A stretch of 42,563 nucleotides of DNA from a virus, in IMG/VR virus record IMGVR_UViG_3300046002_004973, positions 1 to 42,563 of that record. One strand, written 5' to 3'. Positions 3-42,563 of the stretch are shown here, one piece after another. The translations under genes were made by a program, and so were the position numbers. Position 1 is the stretch's first letter. Each line of letters starts with the position of its first letter. The notes below the pieces were generated by a model. The model did not search any database. It saw only the letters and a program-made list of their open reading frames with translations, and was not told the origin of the DNA.

Positions 3-458
3 GATGGCTTTTTTGGATTTGGTGATTTAATGGACTTTTGCCCAGGTCAGTTTTCCAATTGGGTTTTGTCTGGTTATTCAATATTTCCATTAACCGCACC
101 ATTAAATTACGTTAAAGGAAACGGTTGGAATAATGATAGCAGTCAATCAGGGGTTTATTGGGATGCTGAATTAATCGCTTCTTTAGATGCTTTTATTGCC
201 ACTCAAAAAGAAGATTTGCTGGATTCCTGGACGAATTTACTTTGCAAACAAACTTTGTGGTCTAAGCTTTCATCAAATCGGGTTAATTGGTTTACTCAAA
301 GTAATCAGGAAATTACCAATGCAAACATGGCAACTTTTGAAAGTCAATTTATTGATGCTATTAAGATTTGGGCTAATCAATTGAACCTACAAGGCGAGGG
401 TTTGGCGTTCAATTATTCTGATGCAGCCGTTGTTCAGAATCGGGGAATTAGGCCATAA
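3..458 (+). CDS. Virion-type protein, C-terminal part (starts at 41849)
   Basis: This is the tail of the gene that begins at 41849 and runs off the right end. Joined through the terminal repeat, the full product is 347 residues. The visible part is rich in aromatic residues (FGFGDLMDFCPGQFSNW) and has no signal peptide or membrane segment. I recognise the N-terminal half as a type often seen among structural genes of Bacteroidetes phages, but I know no biochemical role. It lies downstream of the fibre genes at 38466-41144 and just before a bidirectional terminator, consistent with the last gene of a late plus-strand unit. The first codon here reads GAT where the right-hand copy has TAT, so trust the right end. 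Confidence 0.75.
   Translation, partial: DGFFGFGDLMDFCPGQFSNWVLSGYSIFPLTAPLNYVKGNGWNNDSSQSGVYWDAELIASLDAFIATQKEDLLDSWTNLLCKQTLWSKLSSNRVNWFTQSNQEITNANMATFESQFIDAIKIWANQLNLQGEGLAFNYSDAAVVQNRGIRP
4..129. repeat. Terminal direct repeat, left copy
   Basis: These 126 bases are identical to 42438-42563 at the other end. A coding frame continues through the join, so this is the overlap left when a circular or circularly permuted molecule is assembled. The three bases before it (ggg) do not match the corresponding bases on the right (att) and are probably a contig-end artefact. True short terminal repeats on a linear genome are possible but less likely at a length close to an assembler k-mer. Confidence 0.9.
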
Positions 459-12423: not shown

Positions 12424-13086
12424 TTAAGATGTATGATGAATTTGAGATGGTGCAACTTTTAAAGGTTGCTGAGTTATTTTACCAGGCATAAAACCGTAAG
12501 TTTTAAACATGGATTGTATGCCTGTTAATTGCCAATCTAGGCCGCCTGTTTGCGTTTGAGTTTCTTCCAATAAGATTTGACAGGCTTTTTGATTTATGCA
12601 ATAAGCATGAGTAAGCCACATGCCGGAACCGGACCAAAGACCATGAAAGTTTTCGTTTTTTACAATTTCAATTGAATCTTCAATAGATGCCTTATTCCTT
12701 ATAAACCCAAAGTTTACGAAATCCCAATCGGGCATTTTATCCCAATTTTTAAAGATTGACAAATCGGAAAACAAAGCATCGTCCTCAAGTATTAAACAGT
12801 TTTCAAAACCAGATTCTAAAAACTTATGCCATGTTTTTCTATGGCTTGAAAAACAACCGACTTCCGATATAGAAACGGCCCCACGTCTTAGGTTCTTTTT
12901 TCGATACGAATTGTCAATAAAATGGCTTGGGTTAGATCCATCGTCTGCAATTATCCATTCTGGTTTATTGCCGCTTTTATCTTTTATTTCAAGTCTATCA
13001 AATTGCTCAATCAGTAACTTTCGCCTTTTCAGGCCGCTTGATTTGTTTAGGCTAATAAAATAAATGTGATCGAATGGCAAAACCAT
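12424..13086 (-). CDS. Family 25 glycosyltransferase
   Basis: The 220-residue product fits GT25 (LPS biosynthesis type): IYFISLNKSSGLKRRKLL at the start, ISEVGCFSSHRKTW at 73-86 and the metal-binding LEDDA at 100-104. GT25 enzymes add galactose or glucose to LPS or to protein hydroxylysine. Its place between portal and scaffold genes, with its own promoter, suggests it may decorate virion proteins, but action on host LPS is equally possible. The start codon lies 4 nt after the -7 box, so its mRNA is probably leaderless. Confidence 0.8.
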   Translation of the reverse strand: MVLPFDHIYFISLNKSSGLKRRKLLIEQFDRLEIKDKSGNKPEWIIADDGSNPSHFIDNSYRKKNLRRGAVSISEVGCFSSHRKTWHKFLESGFENCLILEDDALFSDLSIFKNWDKMPDWDFVNFGFIRNKASIEDSIEIVKNENFHGLWSGSGMWLTHAYCINQKACQILLEETQTQTGGLDWQLTGIQSMFKTYGFMPGKITQQPLKVAPSQIHHTS

Positions 13087-15811: not shown

Positions 15812-18319
15812 TTATCCTATACAGGAATTATTTTCGGGCTGGTAACCCTGTGTAAGTGCCTGGAATTGCATTTGCTGCAATTTCCGAAAGGATGAATTTT
15901 GGGTAAAATCCTGAGTGTTGGTGATTTCAAGATCTCCCTGAACTGATAAATTTTGACCTTGTAAAACAAAGATTGGGTTTTTCGTGGCGGAAATCATGGC
16001 TCTTTGTGTTGCTAAGTCTAAGTAATCAGTATGCAAATATATAACTTCGTCTGTACTATTTTCAGGAATTTGAAAAGTACCATCTGAATTTCTGTAAATG
16101 CTTTCCTCACTTTTTGAGGTTTGACCTGCTCCGTTTAATGGAACTCTGATTCTTTGAAGCCAACCATTAATATATTCAAAGCCCTCAATTACTGAATTTT
16201 CACTTGCTCCATATTCAAGAATCTGAGTAAAGGTTTCAAAATTATCCAATTGCAAGGGCTGTGAAATTGCCAATAAACTGGAATAATTATCGCCTTCATC
16301 TATATAGCTTTGAAAGATTCCAATAAAGTAATTACTGTTTGCGAGTGGTGGGATTGTGATGCTGGCTTCATATTGATTTGCAGGTGGAGCAATTGTTGGA
16401 AAGGAAATTTTTTCTGGTACTGAAATGACTGCAACTAATGCGTTTTCTAAAATATATGGAACTGTGGTAAAAAACCTAATAACAGTAAATTCAATTTCAA
16501 AAGAATCCCAAATTGTTGGATAACCATTGGCTGTTAAATAATTTGCTATTGAATCTGCAAATTCAAAATCAGTTCCAGATGTATCCAAACTTGCGTTTGG
16601 AATTATAATAAGAGTGTATACTAGTGCATTTTGGTCGGTTGCTGCGGCTAAAGTAATAACGTGGTTTCCAGCATCAATATTTGCCATTAGAGTATAAATA
16701 CCATAGTAATCTTCTGTCGTTGAATCCCATGCAATATTCCATTGCAAAGTCCTATTATAAGGACCTTTTAAACTCCCAATATCCTGCAAATACTGACCAT
16801 TACAATCAAAGATTCCAATTCTTGGAAATTGGTCGCTATCGGGTCCAATTTCAGGCTCAAAAATAAAATTGCTTGGAATGTTAATTTGATAAGAATCGCC
16901 TGACCTAATTGTCAGGTTAAACAATTCTTCATTTTCAACCGTTCCAAATTCGCATTGGTCATAATCGTAAAAAACCGTTTTATAAAGCTTTCCAGTGTTA
17001 GGATTTGCTGGGTCTGTACCACTTAAAAGACTTGCTAAATCTGGAGGCAAACCATCAAATTCTGCATAAGAAAATGGTGAATTATCATATGATAAAAAAG
17101 CAATAATTCCTTTTTCTAATATACTCGCCGTTGTTACAAATTTAAAAACAATTTGCCCTGATATTGTTTCGGTTGTATAAGTGGTTGGAAACCCATTTGC
17201 ATTTAAGTAGGTCTCAATTGAATCAGCAAATAAATAACTGCTTGTACTAACATCTAAGCTTGCAAAAGGAATTGTAATTAATGATGTTATCCCTATGTAT
17301 TGTTCATTCCCTCCATAAAGAATTATATCAGAGACATTATTATCAACTAATGACATTATGTCTAAAACAGTTCCATATATACCAGTAAAACTATTTATTG
17401 CAATGTTCCATTGAAATTCTGTTTGATTATTACTTTTTGTATAATTTGGGTTAACAAATCTTTGAAAATACCATATATCAGAAACATTTATTCCAGCAAG
17501 GACAAATGATATTTCATTTTCTGCACTTGAAACTGAAAGTTGTTTTTTTGATGAACTAACATTTATGAAATTAAATTCCCAATCGCCCGGCAATGCAGGT
17601 AAATAAATATTAGTATCATTCCAGTCATCATTTGTAATAGATTCTTTGATTGGCTTTTCAAGAAAGAATGAAACCATTGCTTTTTCAATTTGAGTTAGTT
17701 CCCTTAGATGAAAAATGGTCTTTGGAAGCACTCGTAAATCAGTTACACCATCTCTTTGAGGTCGGTTTGTTGATGTGTTGTATTCCCAATCGTAAGCCCT
17801 TAGAAGCCTTCTTTCTGCTATTCCTGTTGATGGATTATAAGTAAAGGTATCTGGAAATATTGCGGCCCCGTTTTGATTGTAAACAAATAGGGTTTTTGCA
17901 ATATTTAATTCTTCAGCTATGTACGGTCTTATTGTAGCGGACTCTAATTGATCGGGACCAGCTGTAAAAACGGTATCGCTTGCCGTTACAACTCCATCGG
18001 TTAAATTGAAAATTATTTCAATAAAACATTCACTATTTTGTTGAATAGCAATTTTTAAAGTGTAAACCTCTGAGCCTACCCTTGTCGGGTAAGGGCTTGG
18101 TAAAACCAATTCTAATGAGGCAAAATTTGGAGGTTCGTTTCTATATTTTATAAAATTTCTAATTTCATCAACTGCAATAAAAAATTTATAACCAACAAAA
18201 AAGTTATCAACAAAAAAAGCATTTAATACTTGAATTTGACTTTTGCGATAAGCATATTCATCACCAAAATTGCCGTTAATTTCAGCTTGATCAAATCTTA
18301 TAAAAGGAAATGGACCCAT
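15812..18319 (-). CDS. Large virion protein with duplicated internal domain
   Basis: The 835-residue product is beta-rich and has no signal peptide. Residues about 302-412 and 525-634 are copies of one another: both have QWNIA at the start, YGxY/YGIYT, then TIPFASLD / IIPNASLD, FADSIETYLNANGFPT / FADSIANYLTANGYPT and a final FxTTxxILE. Such repeats are common in tail fibres and baseplate proteins that contact the host. The gene lies between the protease and the 283-residue protein. I infer a tail-tip, spike or fibre component; no enzymatic motif is seen. Confidence 0.55.
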   Translation of the reverse strand: MGPFPFIRFDQAEINGNFGDEYAYRKSQIQVLNAFFVDNFFVGYKFFIAVDEIRNFIKYRNEPPNFASLELVLPSPYPTRVGSEVYTLKIAIQQNSECFIEIIFNLTDGVVTASDTVFTAGPDQLESATIRPYIAEELNIAKTLFVYNQNGAAIFPDTFTYNPSTGIAERRLLRAYDWEYNTSTNRPQRDGVTDLRVLPKTIFHLRELTQIEKAMVSFFLEKPIKESITNDDWNDTNIYLPALPGDWEFNFINVSSSKKQLSVSSAENEISFVLAGINVSDIWYFQRFVNPNYTKSNNQTEFQWNIAINSFTGIYGTVLDIMSLVDNNVSDIILYGGNEQYIGITSLITIPFASLDVSTSSYLFADSIETYLNANGFPTTYTTETISGQIVFKFVTTASILEKGIIAFLSYDNSPFSYAEFDGLPPDLASLLSGTDPANPNTGKLYKTVFYDYDQCEFGTVENEELFNLTIRSGDSYQINIPSNFIFEPEIGPDSDQFPRIGIFDCNGQYLQDIGSLKGPYNRTLQWNIAWDSTTEDYYGIYTLMANIDAGNHVITLAAATDQNALVYTLIIIPNASLDTSGTDFEFADSIANYLTANGYPTIWDSFEIEFTVIRFFTTVPYILENALVAVISVPEKISFPTIAPPANQYEASITIPPLANSNYFIGIFQSYIDEGDNYSSLLAISQPLQLDNFETFTQILEYGASENSVIEGFEYINGWLQRIRVPLNGAGQTSKSEESIYRNSDGTFQIPENSTDEVIYLHTDYLDLATQRAMISATKNPIFVLQGQNLSVQGDLEITNTQDFTQNSSFRKLQQMQFQALTQGYQPENNSCIG

Positions 18320-18323
18320 ATTT

Positions 18324-19520
18324 TTATTTTACTCCGATTTCAAAAACTCGTGATATATTACCCGTTCCGGTTGTAGTTAATTCAAATACTTTTCCATTGA
18401 CATTAATTGCCTTGGAAAAGTTTATGTTTGGTGTAAATCCTAATGGAACATTTACCCCATCAACTGTCAATGTCAATGTTTGGTTTGGACTGCCACCTTG
18501 GAATCCAGAATTTAAAAACACATTTGTAATTGAAACAGGAGCCGAATAAGTAAATTGAACTCGAAAAGGTCCAGTTGTTAAATACCTCGTTGTCAAATTG
18601 CCATCAGTTGCGTTTGCTGTTATTCCTGAATGAGTTGTGCCAGAATAGGTAATTATTCTTGTTATGGCAGGAGGCTCAGGACTTCCTTCAATTGGAATAC
18701 TGGAATTCTTAGCTAAAGTTTTTTGCATCGTATCTATACACCTTGGATGAAATTCAAGAGGCATTTTAATTGTTCCCCGATTATAGCAATAACTCATAAC
18801 CGTACCATTTAAAGTAAATTTTGTACTTGTTTGACCACACCCAGTAAAGCAGCTATCTATTCTTGCTGTTGTTCCATTAGGCATTTTCCAACAATCGTGA
18901 GTGTGCGGTGAACCAAAATAATGACCAAGTTCGTGAGCGATTATAAAGCTATTAAAAAAAGTGTTTTGGGCATAAACCCCACAAACTGCCGACCTGCCGC
19001 TTGTACTATTTACCCCACCAATAAAGGCTAGTCCACCCAATGGCTTATTAAATAACAATATACTGGCATCCACGTTTGGAAGCTGCCAGTAGTTGTTATT
19101 GAAGCTGTTTAAAAGCAAATAGATGTTTGTTATTGGTGTGTAAACGCTTGGAACCTTTAAGATTTCAATCCTTGCAATCTTAGTGAAAATGTTAGCAGGT
19201 TTATACGCTGCCATTGCCAGATTATGGTTATTAAGCACATACGTTGAGCACGCTGCATCGTTGCTACCAAGTGCGACATAAAGGTCATAATCAACTACAT
19301 AATTGAGCCTTGCCACTTTCTTGCTAATATCCACAATTGCAGCCCTTCCGAATCTATTTGGTTTAATTGTAAGGTTGTAATCCTTTGGAATAACATAGTC
19401 ATTTTCCTGAAAGACCAATTGAACTGAATCTTTGATTTCTTGCAATTCTGTTTTCTGGTCCTGCCTGCATCCTGACATTGAAATCAGAATAAGGCCAAAA
19501 AGTATTAATAGGTTTTTCAT
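18324..19520 (-). CDS. Lipoprotein metzincin zinc metalloprotease
   Basis: The 398-residue product has an N-terminal lipoprotein signal (hydrophobic stretch then ISMSGC, lipidated Cys18). Its catalytic motif HELGHYFGSPH at 196-206 is the metzincin HExxHxxGxxH, with three zinc ligands (H196, H200, H206) and base E197. The Met-turn is GTVMSYC at 239-245. Residues about 285-398 form a beta-sandwich-like domain (ITNVFLNSGFQGGSPNQTLT) that may bind a surface target. It lies among tail/virion genes, 4 bases before the 835-residue protein gene. The signal peptide predicts export and anchoring in the host envelope, so it may cut host surface proteins, modify receptors or act in exclusion. Secreted phage metzincins are unusual. 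Confidence 0.8.
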   Translation of the reverse strand: MKNLLILFGLILISMSGCRQDQKTELQEIKDSVQLVFQENDYVIPKDYNLTIKPNRFGRAAIVDISKKVARLNYVVDYDLYVALGSNDAACSTYVLNNHNLAMAAYKPANIFTKIARIEILKVPSVYTPITNIYLLLNSFNNNYWQLPNVDASILLFNKPLGGLAFIGGVNSTSGRSAVCGVYAQNTFFNSFIIAHELGHYFGSPHTHDCWKMPNGTTARIDSCFTGCGQTSTKFTLNGTVMSYCYNRGTIKMPLEFHPRCIDTMQKTLAKNSSIPIEGSPEPPAITRIITYSGTTHSGITANATDGNLTTRYLTTGPFRVQFTYSAPVSITNVFLNSGFQGGSPNQTLTLTVDGVNVPLGFTPNINFSKAINVNGKVFELTTTGTGNISRVFEIGVK

Positions 19521-31229: not shown

Positions 31230-31589
31230 ATGGAATTAGAGAATTTTAACCTTTCAGAATTTGATTCACCCGATTTAGTCGGGAGCGGCTCAAAAATGAA
31301 TCCTGACTTTCTTTTGAAGCTGGATAAAGCCCGGGCAATAGCTGGAATACCTTTTAAAATCAATTCTGGCTATCGTACTGAAGCCCATAACAAAAAGGTC
31401 GGTGGTACACCAAATTCAGCCCACACAAAAGGATTTGCGGCTGACATTGCTTATTCAACAGGAACGGATGGATATAAGATTTTGATAGCTTTGCAGCAAG
31501 TCGGATTTACTCGAATTGGGATTTATTCTCGATGGATTCACGTTGATTCGGATCCTTCCTTACCTTCAAAAGTTATTTGGTCAAAATAA
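31230..31589 (+). CDS. Peptidase M15 endolysin
   Basis: The 119-residue product is the compact M15_3-type zinc peptidase. Motifs are SGYRTEAHN (46-54), SAHTKGFAADI with H65 and D72, and RWIHVD with H104 and D106, giving the usual zinc ligands H-D-H. Such enzymes cleave peptide cross-links or stem peptides in peptidoglycan. It is the first gene of the lysis cassette, before membrane and lipoprotein genes. There is no signal peptide, so it needs a holin to reach the cell wall. Confidence 0.9.
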   Translation: MELENFNLSEFDSPDLVGSGSKMNPDFLLKLDKARAIAGIPFKINSGYRTEAHNKKVGGTPNSAHTKGFAADIAYSTGTDGYKILIALQQVGFTRIGIYSRWIHVDSDPSLPSKVIWSK

Positions 31590-31907
31590 ATGAAAGAAAC
31601 ATTTTTTCAATTCGCTTGTAAGCTTAAAGAGGATTCCTACAAGTTTATTTCCGACATTTCAACAGTTGGCATTGCTTCAATATTAACCAACTCCGAAAAC
31701 TGGCTACTAATTCATGGAGCCGCTTTCCTGATCTTTGGCAGAATTGTGCTTTTACTAGCAGATGCTTATAAAAGAATAAGAGACGTTAAAAAGCCTGAAT
31801 GGGATAATATTGTGATTCCAGTTTTAAAAAAAGAAGCGGTTCAAAATCGTAAAAAATCCTTTTGGAAGAAATTAATTAATCAAATCAAACAATTTTTAAA
31901 ATGGTAA
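31590..31907 (+). CDS. Membrane protein, holin-like
   Basis: The product has 105 residues with one clear membrane segment (WLLIHGAAFLIFGRIVLLL, about 38-56) and a basic C-terminus (KKSFWKKLINQIKQFLKW). The ATG directly follows the endolysin stop. The context between endolysin and a lipoprotein suggests a holin or membrane helper, but the single segment and long cytoplasmic tail make the type uncertain. Overlaps the next gene by 7 bases. Confidence 0.55.
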   Translation: MKETFFQFACKLKEDSYKFISDISTVGIASILTNSENWLLIHGAAFLIFGRIVLLLADAYKRIRDVKKPEWDNIVIPVLKKEAVQNRKKSFWKKLINQIKQFLKW

Positions 31908-32239
31908 AATATCTGTTTTTATTCACTTTTACATTTGCTTGTAATTCTCCAAAAGTTAGTCCAACTATTGATGGCAGACTGGAATACATTGAGCAAAAAG
32001 CCAAATTGCAGGATCTTGAAATTACTAAGCTTTACGCTGAAAATGATTCCTTGGTAAATTTATGCTTAAGCATTCAGCAAGATCAAAGGACTACCGAATA
32101 CTACCTTAATCAGGACTTTGAAAGGCTGCATTCAAAAATGGATTCCCTTTCAAAGTTACCAGGCGAAAAAGGCAAAGGTTGGAGAATATTAGGTCAGGTT
32201 TTTGGCGAAGCTGCTAAACGGATTATTCCCGGGTTATAA
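31901..32239 (+). CDS. Lipoprotein, spanin-like
   Basis: The 112-residue product has a short signal with lipobox-like FTFAC (lipidated Cys14) and then a coiled coil (IEQKAKLQDLEITKLYAEND, about 30-90). Spanins that join inner and outer membranes in the last lysis step carry this layout. A C-terminal hydrophobic end (AAKRIIPGL) is too short for an inner-membrane anchor, so a partner, perhaps the 31590 product, would be needed. Overlaps the next gene at TAATG. Confidence 0.6.
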   Translation: MVKYLFLFTFTFACNSPKVSPTIDGRLEYIEQKAKLQDLEITKLYAENDSLVNLCLSIQQDQRTTEYYLNQDFERLHSKMDSLSKLPGEKGKGWRILGQVFGEAAKRIIPGL

Positions 32240-32457
32240 TGAGTTTTCAAAGATGGATGGAACTGTTTTCATTTGTCGCTGTAATAATCTTTACAGGAGG
32301 GCTTCTTATTGGCGTTGGTTGGCTTTATAAGTTTGAAAAGATTGATACTTCAGATACTATTTTGATTTACGTTTTAGGTCAGTTTATTACTGGGTTTTGG
32401 GACATGATTAAAAAAAGGAATCGGATTGAATCTTTACCTCCGCCCCCAAAGAGTTAA
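32239..32457 (+). CDS. Small two-TM holin-like protein
   Basis: The product has 72 residues with two hydrophobic segments (FVAVIIFTGGLLIGVGWLY, about 12-30, and ILIYVLGQFITGFWDMI, about 41-57), then a basic and Pro-rich tail (KKRNRIESLPPPPKS). Two-segment small proteins in lysis cassettes are usually holins. It is the last gene before a terminator, overlapping the lipoprotein gene by one base (TAATG). Confidence 0.6.
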   Translation: MSFQRWMELFSFVAVIIFTGGLLIGVGWLYKFEKIDTSDTILIYVLGQFITGFWDMIKKRNRIESLPPPPKS

Positions 32458-33660: not shown

Positions 33661-33692
33661 AAAAAGCGAACCTAAAATAGATCCGCTTTTCG
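33661..33692. terminator. Bidirectional intrinsic terminator
   Basis: AAAAGCG (33662-33668) and CGCTTTT (33684-33690) form the stem; flanking A and T runs. Ends both the MuF gene and the convergent 33719-37932 operon. Confidence 0.75.
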
Positions 33693-33718
33693 CAATTTTC
33701 AAACCAAGAATTAATCTT

Positions 33719-33979
33719 TTATTTATTTCCTTGTGATACAATCCATTCAAGCTTAAGCATTTTGCACTGAGCCATAAATTCATCTTTTTTATCAATTGAA
33801 TTTACCCGGTATTCGAACCAATCCTTTGTGATAGTCCGGCAAAGAATACCCATCTTGCCCAATGCCTCTATTTTTACAGGAATCTTTTCTGTCTTAATAA
33901 ACCCAACAAAAACACTTCCATCCTGCAAAAGATTAAAAAGTGTTTGGTAGTCGGTGGATAATTGATAGGACGATTTCAT
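33719..33979 (-). CDS. Hypothetical protein
   Basis: The product has 86 residues beginning MKSSYQLSTDYQTLFNLLQD, mixed alpha/beta (GSVFVGFIKTEKIPVKIEAL). No motif is recognised. It is the last gene of the minus-strand operon containing IbrA/IbrB-like genes and is followed by the bidirectional terminator. Small accessory role likely; function unknown. Confidence 0.55.
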   Translation of the reverse strand: MKSSYQLSTDYQTLFNLLQDGSVFVGFIKTEKIPVKIEALGKMGILCRTITKDWFEYRVNSIDKKDEFMAQCKMLKLEWIVSQGNK

Positions 33980-33999
33980 GCTTTATTTACTTTATATTC

Positions 34000-34212: not shown

Positions 34213-34878
34213 TTAACTTGAAATGTGTCGATTTGCTCCCAAATGTTTTACAAATCCCTGCATCAAAGTAGCGGCTTTAAACCCTGCTTTTTTATAAACC
34301 TGACCTACTTCTTTTTCTGACTTCCAAGGCTCTTTGATGTTAAACTCTGTTACACCTGCATAACCATTTGGAAAAGTGTTTTTGTAATCGCTTAACCTTC
34401 GTAAAGTAGGCCCAAATGATGTGCCATGCCATTCCCCTCTGTAATCAGTTTTAACAATTTGATATTTTGTTCCCGATTTGGTTTTTTGAACTAACGAATG
34501 AACCGGATGACCATTTCTTTCATTTCTTAATCTTAGCCATACTTCAGATATTTTAGAATTACTTTTTAGAATATCCAAACTTTGGCCCATAAAACCGCTT
34601 GACAAGGTCTTCCAATCGTCTTCCAATGTAAAATAGTATTCAGTACTAACTTTTGACAAAAGGAGATCCAAAGCTTTTATTTGGCCTATTTTCGGGCATG
34701 GTTCAATGAATTCTATTTGAGGAAACAAAATTTTTAAATGGTCATTAATGCCATGAATTCCAGAATCTTCATAAACATAGATTTTTGAAATTGGAAGGTC
34801 TGCAAACTTTAAAAACGATTCTATTGTTTGCTTTAATAAGTCTTGCCTTCCGCAAGATGTAATGGTTACGTCAATCAT
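34213..34878 (-). CDS. GT2/GT-A-like glycosyltransferase
   Basis: The 221-residue product begins MIDVTITSCGRQDLLKQTIES, the N-terminal strand of GT-A glycosyltransferases. It has FTLEDDW with E86, D87 and D88, resembling the metal-binding motif used with nucleotide sugars. The C-terminal half (GVTEFNIKEPWKSEKEVGQV) has a basic surface. It starts right after the IbrA-like stop. It may act with IbrA/IbrB products or on a surface glycan. Family assigned by motif. Confidence 0.65.
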   Translation of the reverse strand: MIDVTITSCGRQDLLKQTIESFLKFADLPISKIYVYEDSGIHGINDHLKILFPQIEFIEPCPKIGQIKALDLLLSKVSTEYYFTLEDDWKTLSSGFMGQSLDILKSNSKISEVWLRLRNERNGHPVHSLVQKTKSGTKYQIVKTDYRGEWHGTSFGPTLRRLSDYKNTFPNGYAGVTEFNIKEPWKSEKEVGQVYKKAGFKAATLMQGFVKHLGANRHISS

Positions 34879-36111
34879 TTAAATTATTGGTTGAATTCTA
34901 GTTTCAATTTCTTTCGCAATTCTCCTTTTATTTTTAATTTCTTTAAATTGCAAATAAGCTTCTGATTTTGGTTGTGTCTGACCAAGGCTTTTGCACCAAT
35001 AATCATTTCTTAAAATAACCTTGCACATTCTTCTCCAAGATGGAGCCCAGCATTTATTTTCTAATTCAATTGGGCTTTCGTCTGGTATTACATCGTAACC
35101 TCTGTCTTTCCAGCCCGATATAAACTTCTTAAATCTTATTTTATAATGCGATTGTGTTTTTTTAGGAAGCGTTTTTAACAAAAGATTGCAAAATGATTTC
35201 CACGTATGTCCCTCTGGTTTTGTTATTTTATTATACCCAGTCATATTACCATTTTCTTGAACATACAAAGCCCCTGAATTTGCGCCATTAACCCTTGCTA
35301 CAACTTTATACCATGTTTCTGGCTCTAAGATATGGTAAAGCCAAAGTCCACGCCTTTGATCGTCTCCGTATGGCTGACAAAGCCTTTGTTGGCTTAGCTT
35401 TACACCTGCCATATTCATTTTGTCGTAAATTTTATTATGTGGCAGGGCTGAATATTTGCCATGAAAAATCCAAATATCTTCGGTTCTCCAATCGTAAATT
35501 GGGTAAATATTGAAAAGCGTTTTTGCAACTTTTGTGGTCCATTTGTAGCCATTATGAGTTAACCCCGTTTTGTTTCTGGCAATTGCGCAATAACGATGCA
35601 GGCTTTCATCGGCCCTTATTCCAATCATTCCAGCACATAGTTTGCCTTGTGAATACCAATCACCAAACAAAACCATAAACTCCTCAAACTCCATTTTTGG
35701 CTGGTAAAAAGGATAAATTTCTGGATTTATAGCTTGCATTGGTTTTGGCCTTACCCAAATATCTTTTTTATCTTCGTCCCAACAAATCCACCTTGGTTCA
35801 AAATTAGAAACTGCATTTCTTAAAAGCATAGGAACGGCAACCCAATTAAGATCAATAATATCTTTATACATATTAATAACAGAATGAAGGTGAACTATTG
35901 TATCTGCATATTGAGCTTCAAGATCAATTATTAAAACCCCGAAATTGCGACCTCTTTTAATTGCTTCTTCTGCAACCAAATGAATCATTACCGTTGAATC
36001 CTTTCCACCAGAAAAGCTTACATAAACCCTTTCGAATTCATCAAAAGTTGTTTTTATTCTTTGCCTTGCAGCCTCAAGAACATTATAGGATTGATACTCT
36101 TTGATTTTCAT
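34879..36111 (-). CDS. IbrA-like PAPS reductase-family protein
   Basis: The 410-residue product has the N-type PP-loop SFSGGKDS at residues 32-39 (nucleotide pyrophosphate binding), then VLIIDLEAQY and DWRTEDIWIFHGKY, typical of the PAPS reductase/DndC superfamily and of the DUF3440 (IbrA-like) members. Its partner, the ParB-like gene upstream (2 bases away), gives the IbrA/IbrB pair known from many phages and from E. coli, where IbrA/B alter expression of Ig-binding proteins. The chemistry may involve ATP-activated substrate or sulfur transfer, but this is not established. Possible DNA or tRNA modification or regulatory role. Confidence 0.75.
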   Translation of the reverse strand: MKIKEYQSYNVLEAARQRIKTTFDEFERVYVSFSGGKDSTVMIHLVAEEAIKRGRNFGVLIIDLEAQYADTIVHLHSVINMYKDIIDLNWVAVPMLLRNAVSNFEPRWICWDEDKKDIWVRPKPMQAINPEIYPFYQPKMEFEEFMVLFGDWYSQGKLCAGMIGIRADESLHRYCAIARNKTGLTHNGYKWTTKVAKTLFNIYPIYDWRTEDIWIFHGKYSALPHNKIYDKMNMAGVKLSQQRLCQPYGDDQRRGLWLYHILEPETWYKVVARVNGANSGALYVQENGNMTGYNKITKPEGHTWKSFCNLLLKTLPKKTQSHYKIRFKKFISGWKDRGYDVIPDESPIELENKCWAPSWRRMCKVILRNDYWCKSLGQTQPKSEAYLQFKEIKNKRRIAKEIETRIQPII

Positions 36112-36113
36112 AT

Positions 36114-37280
36114 TTAATAAATTTCAGCTTGTTTATCAATAAGTAATGCCTCTTCAATTGAAACCGTTTGAATTCCATTTCTAGAAAGCCATGTATTCAA
36201 GTATTCCAAAGCAATTTCATTTGCTCTTTTTTGCTGCTCTTCAGTCAAAAGATTAAATCCGCCACGATAAACAGATGGAATTCGTTTTGCATAGCATAAA
36301 GAAGCCTGTCCAAGCCATGCAATGCGATTCATTGCCTTGTTTGTTAGGTAATGTTCGCAGGAATGCTTCCACTCGCTTATGACCGATTGTAGGGCGTTTT
36401 TAAATTCATCTTCATTGCTCAAAAGCAATCTATATTCTTCAAGACATTGCGCCTCTGTCATTCCTTCTTTTGTCGTGTTGTAAAAACCATATTGGTAGCA
36501 CTCCCATTTATCATAGGTATGAAAAATTCTGGTTTCATCGCTTGTGTTTACTGTCCTAAATTGATTTGCTAGCTTTTCTTCTTCTGAAATTTCATCGTTC
36601 AAATCTTCAAATTCTAATTCGGAATCTTCAATCATCCATGATTTTGAAAAGTCATCGTCCTTAAAAAGGCTTTCCAATCCTGTTATTTGCATTAGCCTTA
36701 AAACTTCATCTTGGTCCATTCCTAATTCTTTGGCAACCCTTTCGTTTGTCCAATTACGATTCTTTAACTCAATTACAATTTCGGACATGGCATTAACCAT
36801 GTGCTTACCTCTTGCCCGATTATGCCTTATTGTAGAAGCAATCCTATTCTTTTTATCAGTTTGCTCAGATCGAATAATAACAGTTGGCAAAAAGCCTTTT
36901 ATCCGGTCCCTAATAACAACTGATTCTTTGCCAACTCTGTGTCTATGGAATCCGTCAATAACCTCTACCTTATCATCATGTGGCCATGTTACAATTGGTT
37001 GAGTATATCCATCATTTAAAATGGATATTTCCAATAATTCCATTTCTGGAGGTGCTACCTTGTTTGGGTTGTAGTCGTTTGAGACGACATTGCCAGAAGA
37101 TACCCATTTAACAAAATCAACTGGTTCTGATTTAAAAGGAGAAATAGAATGAATATGCTCTCTAATAGAATTGATAATATCAACACTTTGCGCAAAATCA
37201 GCATCTTTTAAAAGATCAGAAATCGCGTTTTTAATACCTTGCTCTGTCGGTTTAATATCTGAAAATAATGATAATTGCAT
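36114..37280 (-). CDS. ParB/IbrB-like protein
   Basis: The 388-residue product has the ParB N-terminal fold: IDGFHRHRVG at 108-117 (the GxxRxxA-like region), RHNRARGKH at 152-160, then a helix-turn-helix-like segment (WTNERVAKELGMDQDEVLRLMQ). ParB-family proteins bind CTP and slide on DNA. IbrB is a ParB-like partner of IbrA. The C-terminal part (about 230-388) is less conserved, with helical segments (CLEEYRLLLSNEDEFKNALQ). It lies 2 bases before the IbrA-like gene, which suggests one complex. Confidence 0.75.
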   Translation of the reverse strand: MQLSLFSDIKPTEQGIKNAISDLLKDADFAQSVDIINSIREHIHSISPFKSEPVDFVKWVSSGNVVSNDYNPNKVAPPEMELLEISILNDGYTQPIVTWPHDDKVEVIDGFHRHRVGKESVVIRDRIKGFLPTVIIRSEQTDKKNRIASTIRHNRARGKHMVNAMSEIVIELKNRNWTNERVAKELGMDQDEVLRLMQITGLESLFKDDDFSKSWMIEDSELEFEDLNDEISEEEKLANQFRTVNTSDETRIFHTYDKWECYQYGFYNTTKEGMTEAQCLEEYRLLLSNEDEFKNALQSVISEWKHSCEHYLTNKAMNRIAWLGQASLCYAKRIPSVYRGGFNLLTEEQQKRANEIALEYLNTWLSRNGIQTVSIEEALLIDKQAEIY

Positions 37281-38004: not shown

Positions 38005-38469
38005 ATGGCAAATTATACTTCTACTAAACAATTTTTAGAGGTGCAAATCAGGAATTTAACTAATGCAATGAATCCTGATAAGGTTCTACGTCAAGCAGTT
38101 GGTACAATGACTGGTGAATTGAAAAATAGGATTCAGCAAGATGGAAAACTTTCAAATGGAGGGAAAATTACAAGTCCAAGTCCTAAAAAGTTTGGTGCTT
38201 ATTCTGAAGGATATGGAAAAAAAAGGGCTAAGAAAGGAAGAAATATCACTATTATTGATTTGACGTTTAATGACCAAATGATTTTAAACCTTAAACCAGG
38301 CCCGACAGGACCAAACTCATTTGGACTTGGTTTTCTTTCAAACGAACAAAGGAAAATTGCAGGTTTTAATGAAGAAAGGTTTGGTGCTATCTTTGACCCG
38401 ACAGATCAGGAATTAAAACAGTCGCTTGTAACGATCAATAAAGCCATTCAAAAAGAGTTAAGCAAATGA
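38005..38469 (+). CDS. Neck/tail-completion-like protein
   Basis: The 154-residue product (MANYTSTKQFLEVQIRNLTN at the start) is basic and has TMTGELKNRIQQDGKLSNGG and LSNEQRKIAGFNEERFGAIF, resembling head-tail joining proteins of the HK97 gp10 type. The call is tentative. It overlaps the fibre gene at ATGA (38466-38469). The promoter upstream is weak by eye. Confidence 0.45.
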   Translation: MANYTSTKQFLEVQIRNLTNAMNPDKVLRQAVGTMTGELKNRIQQDGKLSNGGKITSPSPKKFGAYSEGYGKKRAKKGRNITIIDLTFNDQMILNLKPGPTGPNSFGLGFLSNEQRKIAGFNEERFGAIFDPTDQELKQSLVTINKAIQKELSK

Positions 38470-40433
38470 ATAATAACACGTTACAAAAAATCAACTCTGA
38501 AATAAGAAGGCAGTTAAAATTTAAGGTGTTAAACTATGGCGAAAGTCATAAAGTAATAACTGAAAATACTGGTTTTAATTACCGATCAATTGAAAGTGAA
38601 ATCCCTTGCTCAGTCGATGACAATTACGACTTAGTTTTGTTTTTTGTTCGGGAAAACTCTACACCTGATGAAACTGAAGGTAGAGGGCTAAAACAGAAAC
38701 TAAGCAGGTCAGTAAATTATAAACTGGTTGCTAATTCCAAGTTAGCATCTAATGACTATAATTTGAACTATATTTTAAACAATATTAAAGAGGTTCAAAA
38801 AATTGGAACAACAGATAATAATTCAAGATCAATTGCGCAAACCTTTTTTGGCATTGATCAATTCGACTTTACAACGTATTTTTTGGCAATTGATTTTTCA
38901 ATAATGGAGTTAATGGATTGTAATAATAATTCTTGCAGTGCTGGGAATTGCAATTGTCCACCAGGGCCGCAAGGGCCAGAAGGACCAGAAGGACCAGAAG
39001 GACCAGAAGGACCAGAAGGACCAGAAGGACCGCAAGGGCCAAAAGGAGACCAAGGCGATAAGGGCGATAAGGGAGACCAAGGCGATAAGGGAGACCAAGG
39101 TGATAAGGGCGACAAAGGAGACCAAGGCGATAAGGGAGATCAAGGAGACCAAGGCGATAAGGGCGACAAAGGAGACCAAGGCGATCAAGGTCCAGAGGGT
39201 CCAGAGGGGCCGCAAGGTCCGGAAGGTCCACAAGGACCAGCAGGGGAAAATGGTGAATCTGCTAGTTTATATCTTTACAATGCGAGAACCACCGCAACAA
39301 GTGGAAACCCTACACCTGGAAGATTACTTTGGAACAATGCGACACAGGTAAGTTCGACTCAAATAAACATTTCACATCTTACAGATGATGGGATTGATAT
39401 TGATGTTTTTTTGGCTTTGATAATCGTTGGAACAACCATAATCATTCAAGACAAAAATCAAAGTGCCAATTTTCAGACTTGGGAAATTAATGCCCTTCCA
39501 ACTTTAATTACTGGCACAAATAACTATTGGCTTTTACCAGTTACCTTAGTTTCTTCTGGAGGTACCGGGACAACTAACTTTGCAAACAACCATAATTTGA
39601 TTGTTGCTTTGTTGCTGCAAGGTAATAAAGGCGACCAAGGCGATTCTGCTTACCAAGTAGCGGTGAATAATGGTTTTGTTGGAACTGAGGCGCAGTGGCT
39701 TTTATCTTTAGAAGGTGCAAATGGAACCAACGGAACCAACGGAACCAACGGAACCAACGGCACAAATGGAACCAATGGAAATACTATCCTTTACGGGTCA
39801 GTTGCGCCAACAACTGAGGGAGTAAATGGTGATTTTTTTATAAATACTGTTACCAATTTCATTTATGGTCCAAAGGCTAGCGGTGTTTGGCCTTCAGGTA
39901 TTTCTCTAGTTGGACCGCAAGGGCCGATTGGACCCCAAGGACCGACAGGAGCTTTTAGTCCTCTAGGGCTTAAATACTTCAAGAATACTACAACTGTTAC
40001 CCATACCGGTACGCTTGCAAATACTATTTTGGCTTCCATTTTAATTCCTGCCAATACCTTTGCGGAATCAAATTCATTTGAGGTGCTTATTAGAATGCAA
40101 ACGGCCGCTGCAGTTGTAGCTAATGTATTTATAAGGGGTTATTTTAATACCAGCAATTCCCTTAGTGGTGCTATTCTGTTTATGAATACGGCAATGCTTC
40201 CAGGTGCAATTATGTCATTAGGTCAGAGAAACGTAATTGTAAAATCCAGTTCTAGTACGATTGTTTTTTCAGTGGCTACAACTGTTCAATCAGACATCTC
40301 TACTAATGCCAGCGCACAGGCTAACTTAAATATTAATTGGGCAGTGGATCAATACTTAATAGTTGCGGTAACATTAGGGGCAGTCGGGCAAAGCATTAAC
40401 CATTTAGCGACATTAGTCACTCCAGTAGCATGA
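38466..40433 (+). CDS. Collagen-like fibre protein
   Basis: The 655-residue product has an N-terminal domain (1-150), a cysteine-rich neck ([14 protein letters not shown]), then 33 uninterrupted Gly-X-Y triplets (residues 167-265, DNA 38964-39260), mostly GPE, GPQ, GDK and GDQ. A beta-rich domain follows, then GNKGDQGDS, eight further triplets mostly [16 protein letters not shown], and a C-terminal beta domain. Collagen-like triple helices are common in phage fibres. The N-terminal domain would attach to the virion and the C-terminal part would bind the receptor. The N-terminal domain is duplicated alone at 40680-41144. Confidence 0.8.
38964..39260 (+). repeat. Tandem Gly-X-Y coding repeat
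   Basis: 99 codons of Gly-X-Y with near-repeats at 9 and 18 bases, such as GGACCAGAA and AAGGGCGATAAG. Long antisense frames over it arise from the repeat. Prone to slippage and unequal recombination. Confidence 0.9.
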
Positions 40434-41848: not shown

Positions 41849-42563
41849 ATGAATCCTCTTTTAGATTACGTTGGAATTCGAAGCTGTGGTGTAACTCCTG
41901 AATCTGGAATATTTATAAACCAGTTCCCGGGAATGAGTACGGAGTTGATGGACAAAATAGCCAGTCAGGATCAAATCACTTTTAAGCAAGTTTGGAACGA
42001 CATACAAGAATCTGCTTACCTCCGATTTAAAACAGTTGTTCAGGATGCTTTGGTAAAATCAGGATCCGCAAGGTTTGATCAGGTTCTTTACCAGACACAA
42101 AAACCTTTTGTGCAACAATGGGCAGAAATAGAAGGCCAACCTGCTGAGGAAATTTATAGAGGCTGTATTGCTTCAATTGCCGGATCTCGCTATTTGGGCT
42201 TAAAAATCAAAAACATTTTGGTTTATAATTCTGGTGAAAGCGATGTTCCTTATGTCGATATTCGATTGGTTCAAACTCAGGATGGTAAAATCTTAAAACA
42301 ATTGACCGAAACAATTAAACCTGGAATGAATCGGATTTCAATAAACGAAACCTTTTTTTCTGAATTTGATAAAATCAATATTGCCTTATTGGTTGATTGC
42401 ACCAATTTACCAACTTTAAATGGTTCATTTATGGATTATGGCTTTTTTGGATTTGGTGATTTAATGGACTTTTGCCCAGGTCAGTTTTCCAATTGGGTTT
42501 TGTCTGGTTATTCAATATTTCCATTAACCGCACCATTAAATTACGTTAAAGGAAACGGTTGGA
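41849..42563 (+). CDS. Virion-type protein, N-terminal part (continues at 3-458)
   Basis: The frame starts at ATG 41849 (MNPLLDYVGIRSCGVTPESG) and runs off the right end; with 130-458 of the left end it gives 347 residues. It begins about 75 bases after the Mom-like gene start in the opposite direction, a divergent spacer with a weak -7-like TACTTTTA. Blocks seen are FKQVWNDIQESAYLRFKTVV, AGSRYLGLKIKNILVYN and INIALLVDC. This type of protein occurs near structural genes of Bacteroidetes phages; role unknown, no enzyme motif. Confidence 0.75.
   Translation, partial: MNPLLDYVGIRSCGVTPESGIFINQFPGMSTELMDKIASQDQITFKQVWNDIQESAYLRFKTVVQDALVKSGSARFDQVLYQTQKPFVQQWAEIEGQPAEEIYRGCIASIAGSRYLGLKIKNILVYNSGESDVPYVDIRLVQTQDGKILKQLTETIKPGMNRISINETFFSEFDKINIALLVDCTNLPTLNGSFMDYGFFGFGDLMDFCPGQFSNWVLSGYSIFPLTAPLNYVKGNGW
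42438..42563. repeat. Terminal direct repeat, right copy
   Basis: Identical to 4-129. See the left copy. Removing one copy gives a unit of about 42,434 bp. Confidence 0.9.

What the first reader, a model, noticed from the sequence alone, without database searches (positions are those of the whole stretch)
18324..19520. Lipoprotein metzincin protease inside the virion operon
HELGHYFGSPH plus the Met-turn GTVMSYC and a lipoprotein signal at the N-terminus predict an exported, membrane-anchored zinc protease. Virion proteins do not normally have Sec signals. It may be displayed on the host during infection to cut surface proteins or block superinfection, or be taken up into particles. The C-terminal beta domain may provide target binding.
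Basis: partly seen in the sequence, partly recalled or inferred. Interest (0 to 1): 0.75.

Follow-up and report, generated by a model that had tools for sequence, protein, structure and literature searches.

The report
Exported metzincin protease of Bacteroidota phage
An apparently virulent virus of Bacteroidota-type bacteria carries, wedged between two tail genes, a gene for a snake-venom-like zinc protease that the infected cell should export and anchor in its envelope; every comparable relative keeps one such gene even though its place in the genome has moved, which points to a real but untested job of cutting the host's own envelope.

Summary
The ORF is real but on the minus strand (19520->18324, 398 aa). 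It has a Sec/lipoprotein signal (MKNLLILFGLILISMSG|C), a reprolysin-like (M12B-type) metzincin domain (HELGHYFGSPH, Met-turn VMSYC), and a C-terminal domain that as a profile matches a CBM32/discoidin module. The AlphaFold model matches snake-venom and ADAM proteases. It is packed 11 and 4 nt from its tail-gene neighbours. No relative was found in 50,697 named phage records, but relatives exist in uncultured Bacteroidota-type phages and hundreds of cellular genomes. In the phage's own clade each of 12 contigs covering the decisive site encodes one exported metzincin, at one of two loci; where it sits at the lysis-gene junction, fibre slots keep a 32-codon remnant of a protease C-terminus (three contigs). 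Architecture and signal type vary while export and active site stay. Unlike 41/41 cellular relatives checked, the window protein lacks a long pro-domain with a cysteine-switch-like Cys, so it may be active once exported. Best reading: an envelope-acting protease made in the infected cell, not a virion part, for receptor removal/superinfection exclusion or help with lysis. Surface display is not supported by the known Bacteroidetes export signal.

The parts
18324..19520 (-). Exported reprolysin-like metzincin, 398 aa (P0001)
19467..19520 (-). Sec/lipoprotein signal MKNLLILFGLILISMSG-C18
   Evidence: PS51257-type pattern; nearly identical in P0003 (71% identical orthologue)
19320..19466 (-). Short linker (residues 19-67) where most relatives have a long pro-region with a cysteine-switch-like Cys; no Cys here
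   Evidence: A2 alignment
18696..19319 (-). Metzincin catalytic domain (residues 68-275)
   Evidence: Pfam; AF2 pLDDT about 90 over residues 68-230; Foldseek TM(target) about 0.8 to venom proteases
18903..18935 (-). Zinc site HELGHYFGSPH (196-206); H196, E197, H200, H206 invariant in a 63-sequence alignment
18786..18809 (-). Met-turn NGTVMSYC (238-245); M242 invariant
18327..18659 (-). C-terminal beta domain (residues 288-398), CBM32/F5-8-type-C-like, putative glycan-binding
   Evidence: profile A5 against PDB: YeCBM32 2jd9 E=2.3e-6; relatives L130/L132 carry Pfam PF00754
19532..20374 (-). Upstream fibre-like gene (280 aa), 11 nt from the protease start; in relatives replaced by other fibre genes
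15812..18319 (-). Downstream conserved tail-region gene (835 aa), 4 nt after the protease stop; borders the same slot in relatives
31230..32457 (+). Lysis cassette (M15 endolysin, putative holin, small lipoprotein, TM protein); in sister phages the metzincin gene is convergent with it
33661..33999 (-). Region corresponding to the site where sister phages carry their metzincin; the window has only a small gene (33719-33979) here

Best explanation
An enzyme that the phage makes with its tail proteins but that is exported by the host Sec/lipoprotein pathway into the infected cell's own envelope, where the metzincin domain cuts host envelope proteins while the C-terminal CBM32-like domain holds it on a glycan. 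Shown computationally: a real, widely kept gene, an export signal, an intact zinc site and fold. Inferred: activity; late timing (co-transcription with tail genes); anchoring in the outer membrane, periplasmic face by default; benefit. The most likely benefit is to remove or disable surface/receptor proteins late in infection, so that sibling phages and progeny do not adsorb to the dying cell and its debris (about 0.35). Help with lysis and release is nearly as likely (about 0.3). The missing pro-domain and cysteine latch suggest the enzyme is active as soon as it has crossed the membrane.
For: Signal conserved in orthologues. Zn site and Met invariant in 63 sequences; fold matches VAP1, adamalysin and ADAMs. 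No integrase or resolvase found in a terminally overlapping, apparently complete genome. Each of the 12 clade contigs that cover the site used by their group encodes one exported metzincin. The enzyme can sit among tail genes or beside the lysis genes, with lipid or type I signals and different C-terminal modules, so export plus protease is the constant. dN/dS well below 1 where measurable. CBM32-like C-terminus. Adjacent to a fibre gene here, and at the end of the tail module in the distant relative L130, as T5 llp is next to the receptor-binding protein gene (PMC9586334).
Against: No export, activity, substrate, timing or phenotype data. The known surface-export signal is not met. The catalytic core is only about 50% identical between orthologues whose fibre genes are 89% identical, so protease and this fibre do not diverge in step. 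Sister phages encode it away from the fibre gene. The host species is unknown.
Confidence: 0.5

Rival explanations
1. Lysis helper: the protease weakens the envelope (for example by cutting outer-membrane-peptidoglycan tethers or regulatory lipoproteins) so that holin and endolysin release progeny efficiently.
For: In seven sister contigs the metzincin gene is convergent with the endolysin-holin-lipoprotein cassette; in L030 an Amidase_2 endolysin lies one gene downstream. A secreted metzincin of phage origin in Listeria, together with its lipoprotein partner, raises virion release about five-fold (PMC8235301). Default periplasmic orientation fits.
Against: In the window the gene is about 12 kb from the lysis genes, next to fibre genes; the sister arrangement is convergent, not one operon. 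No adjacent TIMP-like partner in the window.
Confidence: 0.3
2. Virion component: the protein is built into the tail and digests a protein layer of the next host during entry; the hydrophobic N-terminus is not used for export.
For: Tight packing between tail genes; discoidin-like domains also occur in phage tail proteins (L130 domain matches phrog_17517 'tail protein').
Against: Lipobox conserved in orthologues; sister enzymes have type I or lipoprotein signals, others carry or resemble T9SS sorting domains, and they are encoded outside the tail genes. Virion proteins are normally not Sec substrates (general knowledge).
Confidence: 0.1
3. Cargo gene serving the host or phage nutritionally (extracellular proteolysis) or as a lysogenic-conversion trait.
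For: Closest cellular relatives are long exported reprolysin-like proteases of Bacteroidota, Ignavibacteriota and others.
Against: No integrase or resolvase found; no own promoter-like element directly upstream; embedded among tail genes; lipid-anchored in the window's clade.
Confidence: 0.1

Closest known systems
Reprolysin/adamalysin-like (M12B-type) metzincins, Pfam PF13688 Reprolysin_5
   Same: Catalytic motif, Met-turn, fold, Pfam score over the cut-off
   Different: No pro-domain/cysteine switch and no disintegrin or Cys-rich domains; phage-encoded; lipoprotein signal
Listeria monocytogenes Mtz/Tim metzincin-lipoprotein pair of phage origin (PMC8235301)
   Same: Exported metzincin linked to phage; sister phages have it beside a small lysis-cassette lipoprotein
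   Different: Gram-positive host, cryptic locus with CI/Cro-like switch, TIMP-like partner; here no adjacent partner in the window, lipid-anchored, among tail genes
Phage T5 Llp superinfection-exclusion lipoprotein (PMC9586334)
   Same: Phage lipoprotein encoded next to a fibre/receptor-binding gene; [quoted passage not shown]
   Different: Llp is a small non-enzymatic blocker of FhuA expressed early; this is a 398 aa enzyme without homology
TIGR03952 metzin_BF0631 zinc-dependent metalloproteinase lipoprotein (Bacteroidota)
   Same: Lipoprotein plus metzincin design
   Different: 13.3 bits against a cut-off of 208: not a member
CBM32 / F5/8 type C (discoidin) domains, e.g. YeCBM32 (PDB 2jd9)
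   Same: C-terminal profile match over most of the domain, E=2.3e-6
   Different: No Pfam hit for the window protein alone; ligand unknown

Membership tests
Metzincins, M12B reprolysin-like | HExxHxxGxxH/D zinc motif | tested here: met
   HELGHYFGSPH 196-206; invariant positions in A4
Metzincins, M12B reprolysin-like | Met-turn after the zinc motif | tested here: met
   NGTVMSYC 238-245; M242 invariant
Metzincins, M12B reprolysin-like | Catalytic-domain fold | tested here: met
   AF2 model, residues 68-230 pLDDT about 90; Foldseek to 2erq, 4j4m, 1kuf, 4dd8, E about 1e-11 to 1e-10, TM(target) about 0.8 for single-domain venom proteases. Zinc-ligand distances were not measured (coordinates not available).
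Metzincins, M12B reprolysin-like | Pfam model over gathering score | tested here: met
   PF13688 43.9 bits vs 27
Metzincins, M12B reprolysin-like | N-terminal pro-domain with cysteine switch (usual, not defining for the clan) | tested here: not met
   41/41 cellular relatives have a Cys 17-42 aa before the domain; window, L009 and L020 have none besides the lipobox/signal Cys
Bacterial lipoprotein | PS51257 signal and lipobox Cys | tested here: met
Surface-exposed Bacteroidetes lipoprotein | Lipoprotein export signal after +1 Cys | tested here: not met
   RQDQK vs K-(D/E)2, Q-A-(D/E)2, SDDDD, SDDFE; rule known from three species only, host unknown
CBM32 / F5-8 type C domain | Sequence-profile match over the domain | tested here: inconclusive
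   hmmsearch of A5: 2jd9 E=2.3e-6; Pfam scan of P0001 alone: none; hhalign against the L132 domain not significant
TIGR03952 metzin_BF0631 | Score over the curated cut-off | tested here: not met
   13.3 vs 208.1 bits
T5 Llp-type superinfection-exclusion lipoprotein | Blocks the receptor of the phage | not testable with these tools
   needs phage and host
Listeria Mtz/Tim pair | Adjacent TIMP-like (lipo)protein partner | tested here: not met
   window neighbours are tail-region genes; in sister phages a small lipoprotein is adjacent but convergent, and its fold was not tested

The most novel reading that the evidence does not exclude
A whole class of Bacteroidota phages carries exported, latch-free reprolysin-like proteases as receptor-destroying enzymes: a proteolytic form of superinfection exclusion and progeny release, comparable in role to influenza neuraminidase, kept in every member of this clade while being moved between the fibre slot and the lysis junction and re-fitted with different glycan-binding modules.
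Probability: 0.25. Interest if true: 0.85.

Novelty: new variant of a known kind. Interest (0 to 1): 0.57.

Why it matters
Phage proteases described so far mostly act on phage proteins inside the cell. This gene and its relatives suggest that uncultured Bacteroidota phages routinely export metzincins into the host envelope, a mode for which I found one experimental precedent (Listeria Mtz/Tim). If confirmed, it gives a testable enzyme for how phages of a major environmental and gut phylum control receptor availability or outer-membrane breakdown, and a phage-derived relative of ADAM/venom proteases that lacks the usual pro-domain latch.

Tried and rejected
First AF2 run with 10 gappy sequences failed (pLDDT 44); repeated with 63 sequences. 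First genome-contig scan with alignment A1 found nothing because its patterns fell in the N-terminus; a catalytic-domain alignment found at least 484 relatives. PHROGs, NCBIfam and named phage records gave no relative. BFVD Foldseek gave only weak or partial matches. hhalign of the C-terminal profile against the F5/8 domain of L132 was not significant, so CBM32 identity rests on the PDB profile hit. Bacteroidota-type promoter matches (5 in the window) are few enough to be largely chance; none lies directly upstream of the gene. Assembly chimera rejected: independent contigs with the same junctions. Positive selection on the catalytic core not claimed: synonymous sites are saturated there, which fits exchange with a diverged copy better. 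A single acquisition of all phage metzincins is not supported: the virus label needs about 9 changes on the tree, at least 3 forced by well-supported branches.

Full report
CHECK. The ORF at 18324-19520 is on the minus strand and encodes 398 aa starting with ATG at 19520. A PS51257-type signal occurs in 1 of 63 window ORFs and in 61 of 20,000 shuffles of this protein; the extended zinc motif in none of 20,000. Pfam Reprolysin_5 scores 43.9 bits against a cut-off of 27. The gene starts 11 nt after a fibre-like gene and ends 4 nt before a conserved tail-region gene, so co-transcription with virion genes is likely but inferred.

STRUCTURE. With 63 homologues AlphaFold2 gives a confident catalytic domain (residues 68-230, pLDDT about 90; mean 76). 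Foldseek matches snake-venom metalloproteases and ADAMs (E to 1.3e-11; TM normalised by target about 0.8 for single-domain venom proteases). Zinc ligands, the catalytic Glu and the Met are invariant in the 63-sequence alignment; distances were not measured. The C-terminal domain (about 288-398) is all-beta; a profile of six phage versions matches YeCBM32 (2jd9, E=2.3e-6) over most of the domain, and two further phage metzincins (L130, L132) carry Pfam-recognised F5/8 type C domains. I therefore read it as a glycan-binding module; ligand unknown.

EXPORT. The signal is nearly identical in the 71% orthologue (P0003) although the catalytic core between signal and C-terminal domain has diverged to about 50% aa and 51-59% nt identity while the ends stay at 82-89% nt, a mosaic that suggests exchange of the core. 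Relatives keep export by different means: lipoprotein signals (L026-L028, L132, L172), apparent type I signals (P0002/P0004, L029, L030, L128) and a Pfam T9SS sorting domain just under its cut-off in L131. Residues +2 to +6 (RQDQK) do not match the lipoprotein export signal described for Capnocytophaga, Bacteroides and Flavobacterium (PMC5080379); the default reading is an outer-membrane lipoprotein facing the periplasm, not the surface.

LATCH. In 41 of 41 cellular relatives examined, and in most phage ones, a Cys, often in a PFxC[GE]-like context, lies 17-42 residues before the catalytic domain, behind a long pro-region: the layout of a cysteine switch. The window protein, P0003 and P0002 lack it, and the window has only about 48 residues between lipid Cys and catalytic domain. 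Absence of zymogen control is an inference.

GENOMIC CONTEXT. The record overlaps itself at its ends by at least 118 nt, so it is probably a complete genome of about 42.4 kb; no integrase or resolvase was found. In group A (terminase about 98-100% identical: the window, 3300046003_004709, 3300046011_006709, 3300046010_009561, 3300042469_000516) the metzincin is in the slot between the fibre and 15812 homologues. In group B (endolysin 89-93% identical but terminase 34-37%) it lies at the end of a glycosyltransferase-containing gene row, convergent with the lysis cassette, in seven contigs (one ORF cut by the contig end). So 12 contigs of 12 in which the group's site is covered encode one; several are near-copies, so the independent number is about eight. 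In group B, three contigs (L006, L007, L016) retain in the fibre slot a 32-codon stretch 75% identical to the C-terminus of the group-B protease (E=2e-12), which suggests that a protease or its C-terminal module once stood there. More distant relatives (portal 42-44% identical: L012-L014, L207, L212; also L194, L195) have no metzincin in the part held. An even more distant phage, L130 (capsid protein 28%), has a larger exported metzincin at the end of its tail/fibre module.

DISTRIBUTION. No relative among 50,697 named phage records. IMG/VR gave 50 distinct loci and GTDB genomes at least 484, mostly Bacteroidota and Ignavibacteriota among the 80 kept. On the tree of catalytic domains the window protein groups with P0003 and the viral L140, near the base among several phage lineages; virus and cell labels are interleaved, so several exchanges are likely.

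MECHANISM. Shown computationally: gene, signal, fold, active-site residues, conservation of an exported metzincin in the clade. Inferred: expression with tail genes, Sec export, lipid anchoring, proteolysis in the envelope. Two purposes remain close: receptor removal/superinfection exclusion (T5 llp, a lipoprotein gene next to the receptor-binding gene, is the precedent for place and topology; PMC9586334) and help with lysis (Listeria Mtz/Tim, a phage-derived exported metzincin with a lipoprotein partner, increases virion release about five-fold and needs the intact protease; PMC8235301). I put about 0.35 and 0.3 on these, 0.1 on a virion role, 0.1 on a host-serving cargo gene, the rest on other envelope functions.

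VERDICT. New variant of a known kind: a metzincin of known fold and a phage lipoprotein of known type, in a combination and clade-wide maintenance of which I found no description.

Noticed in passing
window 12-129 and 42446-42563: Bases 12-129 repeat the last 118 bases exactly, and the gene cut at the 3' end (41849) continues from the 5' end: the record is probably a complete, circularly assembled genome of about 42.4 kb.
   Followed up: yes
L027:6596-8845 (also L028:4638-6887): The large terminase ORF is interrupted near the Walker A motif (..GGSG|CFGPNQLIE.. to ..NSENILVH..) with an ORF resembling an HNH homing endonuclease between the pieces: looks like an intein in the terminase.
   Followed up: no
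window 34879-37280 (-): A PAPS-reductase/DUF3440 protein (PF01507, PF11922) next to a ParB-like gene, resembling IbrA/IbrB-type pairs of other mobile elements.
   Followed up: no
window 31901-32239 (+): Small predicted lipoprotein (TFAC lipobox at residue 14) in the lysis cassette, spanin-like in position; in sister phages it is the convergent neighbour of the metzincin gene, so a metzincin-lipoprotein partnership as in Listeria Mtz/Tim is worth testing.
   Followed up: partly
window 38466-40433 (+): Protein with long collagen-type GxY repeats (Pfam Collagen) and NGT repeats; probably a fibre or adhesin.
   Followed up: no
window 12424-13086 and 34213-34878 (-): Two glycosyltransferase-like genes, one inside the head-gene block between portal-like gene and MCP and kept there in related phages; family assigned by eye only.
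   Followed up: no
L020:1156-2952: Group-B protease P0002 carries a stretch (YTYSTWSSCINGVQTRS..C..C) resembling a thrombospondin type-1 repeat, as in ADAMTS proteins; Pfam did not call it.
   Followed up: no
L035:2252-13495: A 106 kb viral contig has very large exported metzincin proteins in tandem, sharing the C-terminal module seen in P0002 and L029.
   Followed up: no
L128:7443-9086: Phage metzincin with HELGHNFNSKH: the usual Gly of HExxHxxGxxH is Asn.
   Followed up: no
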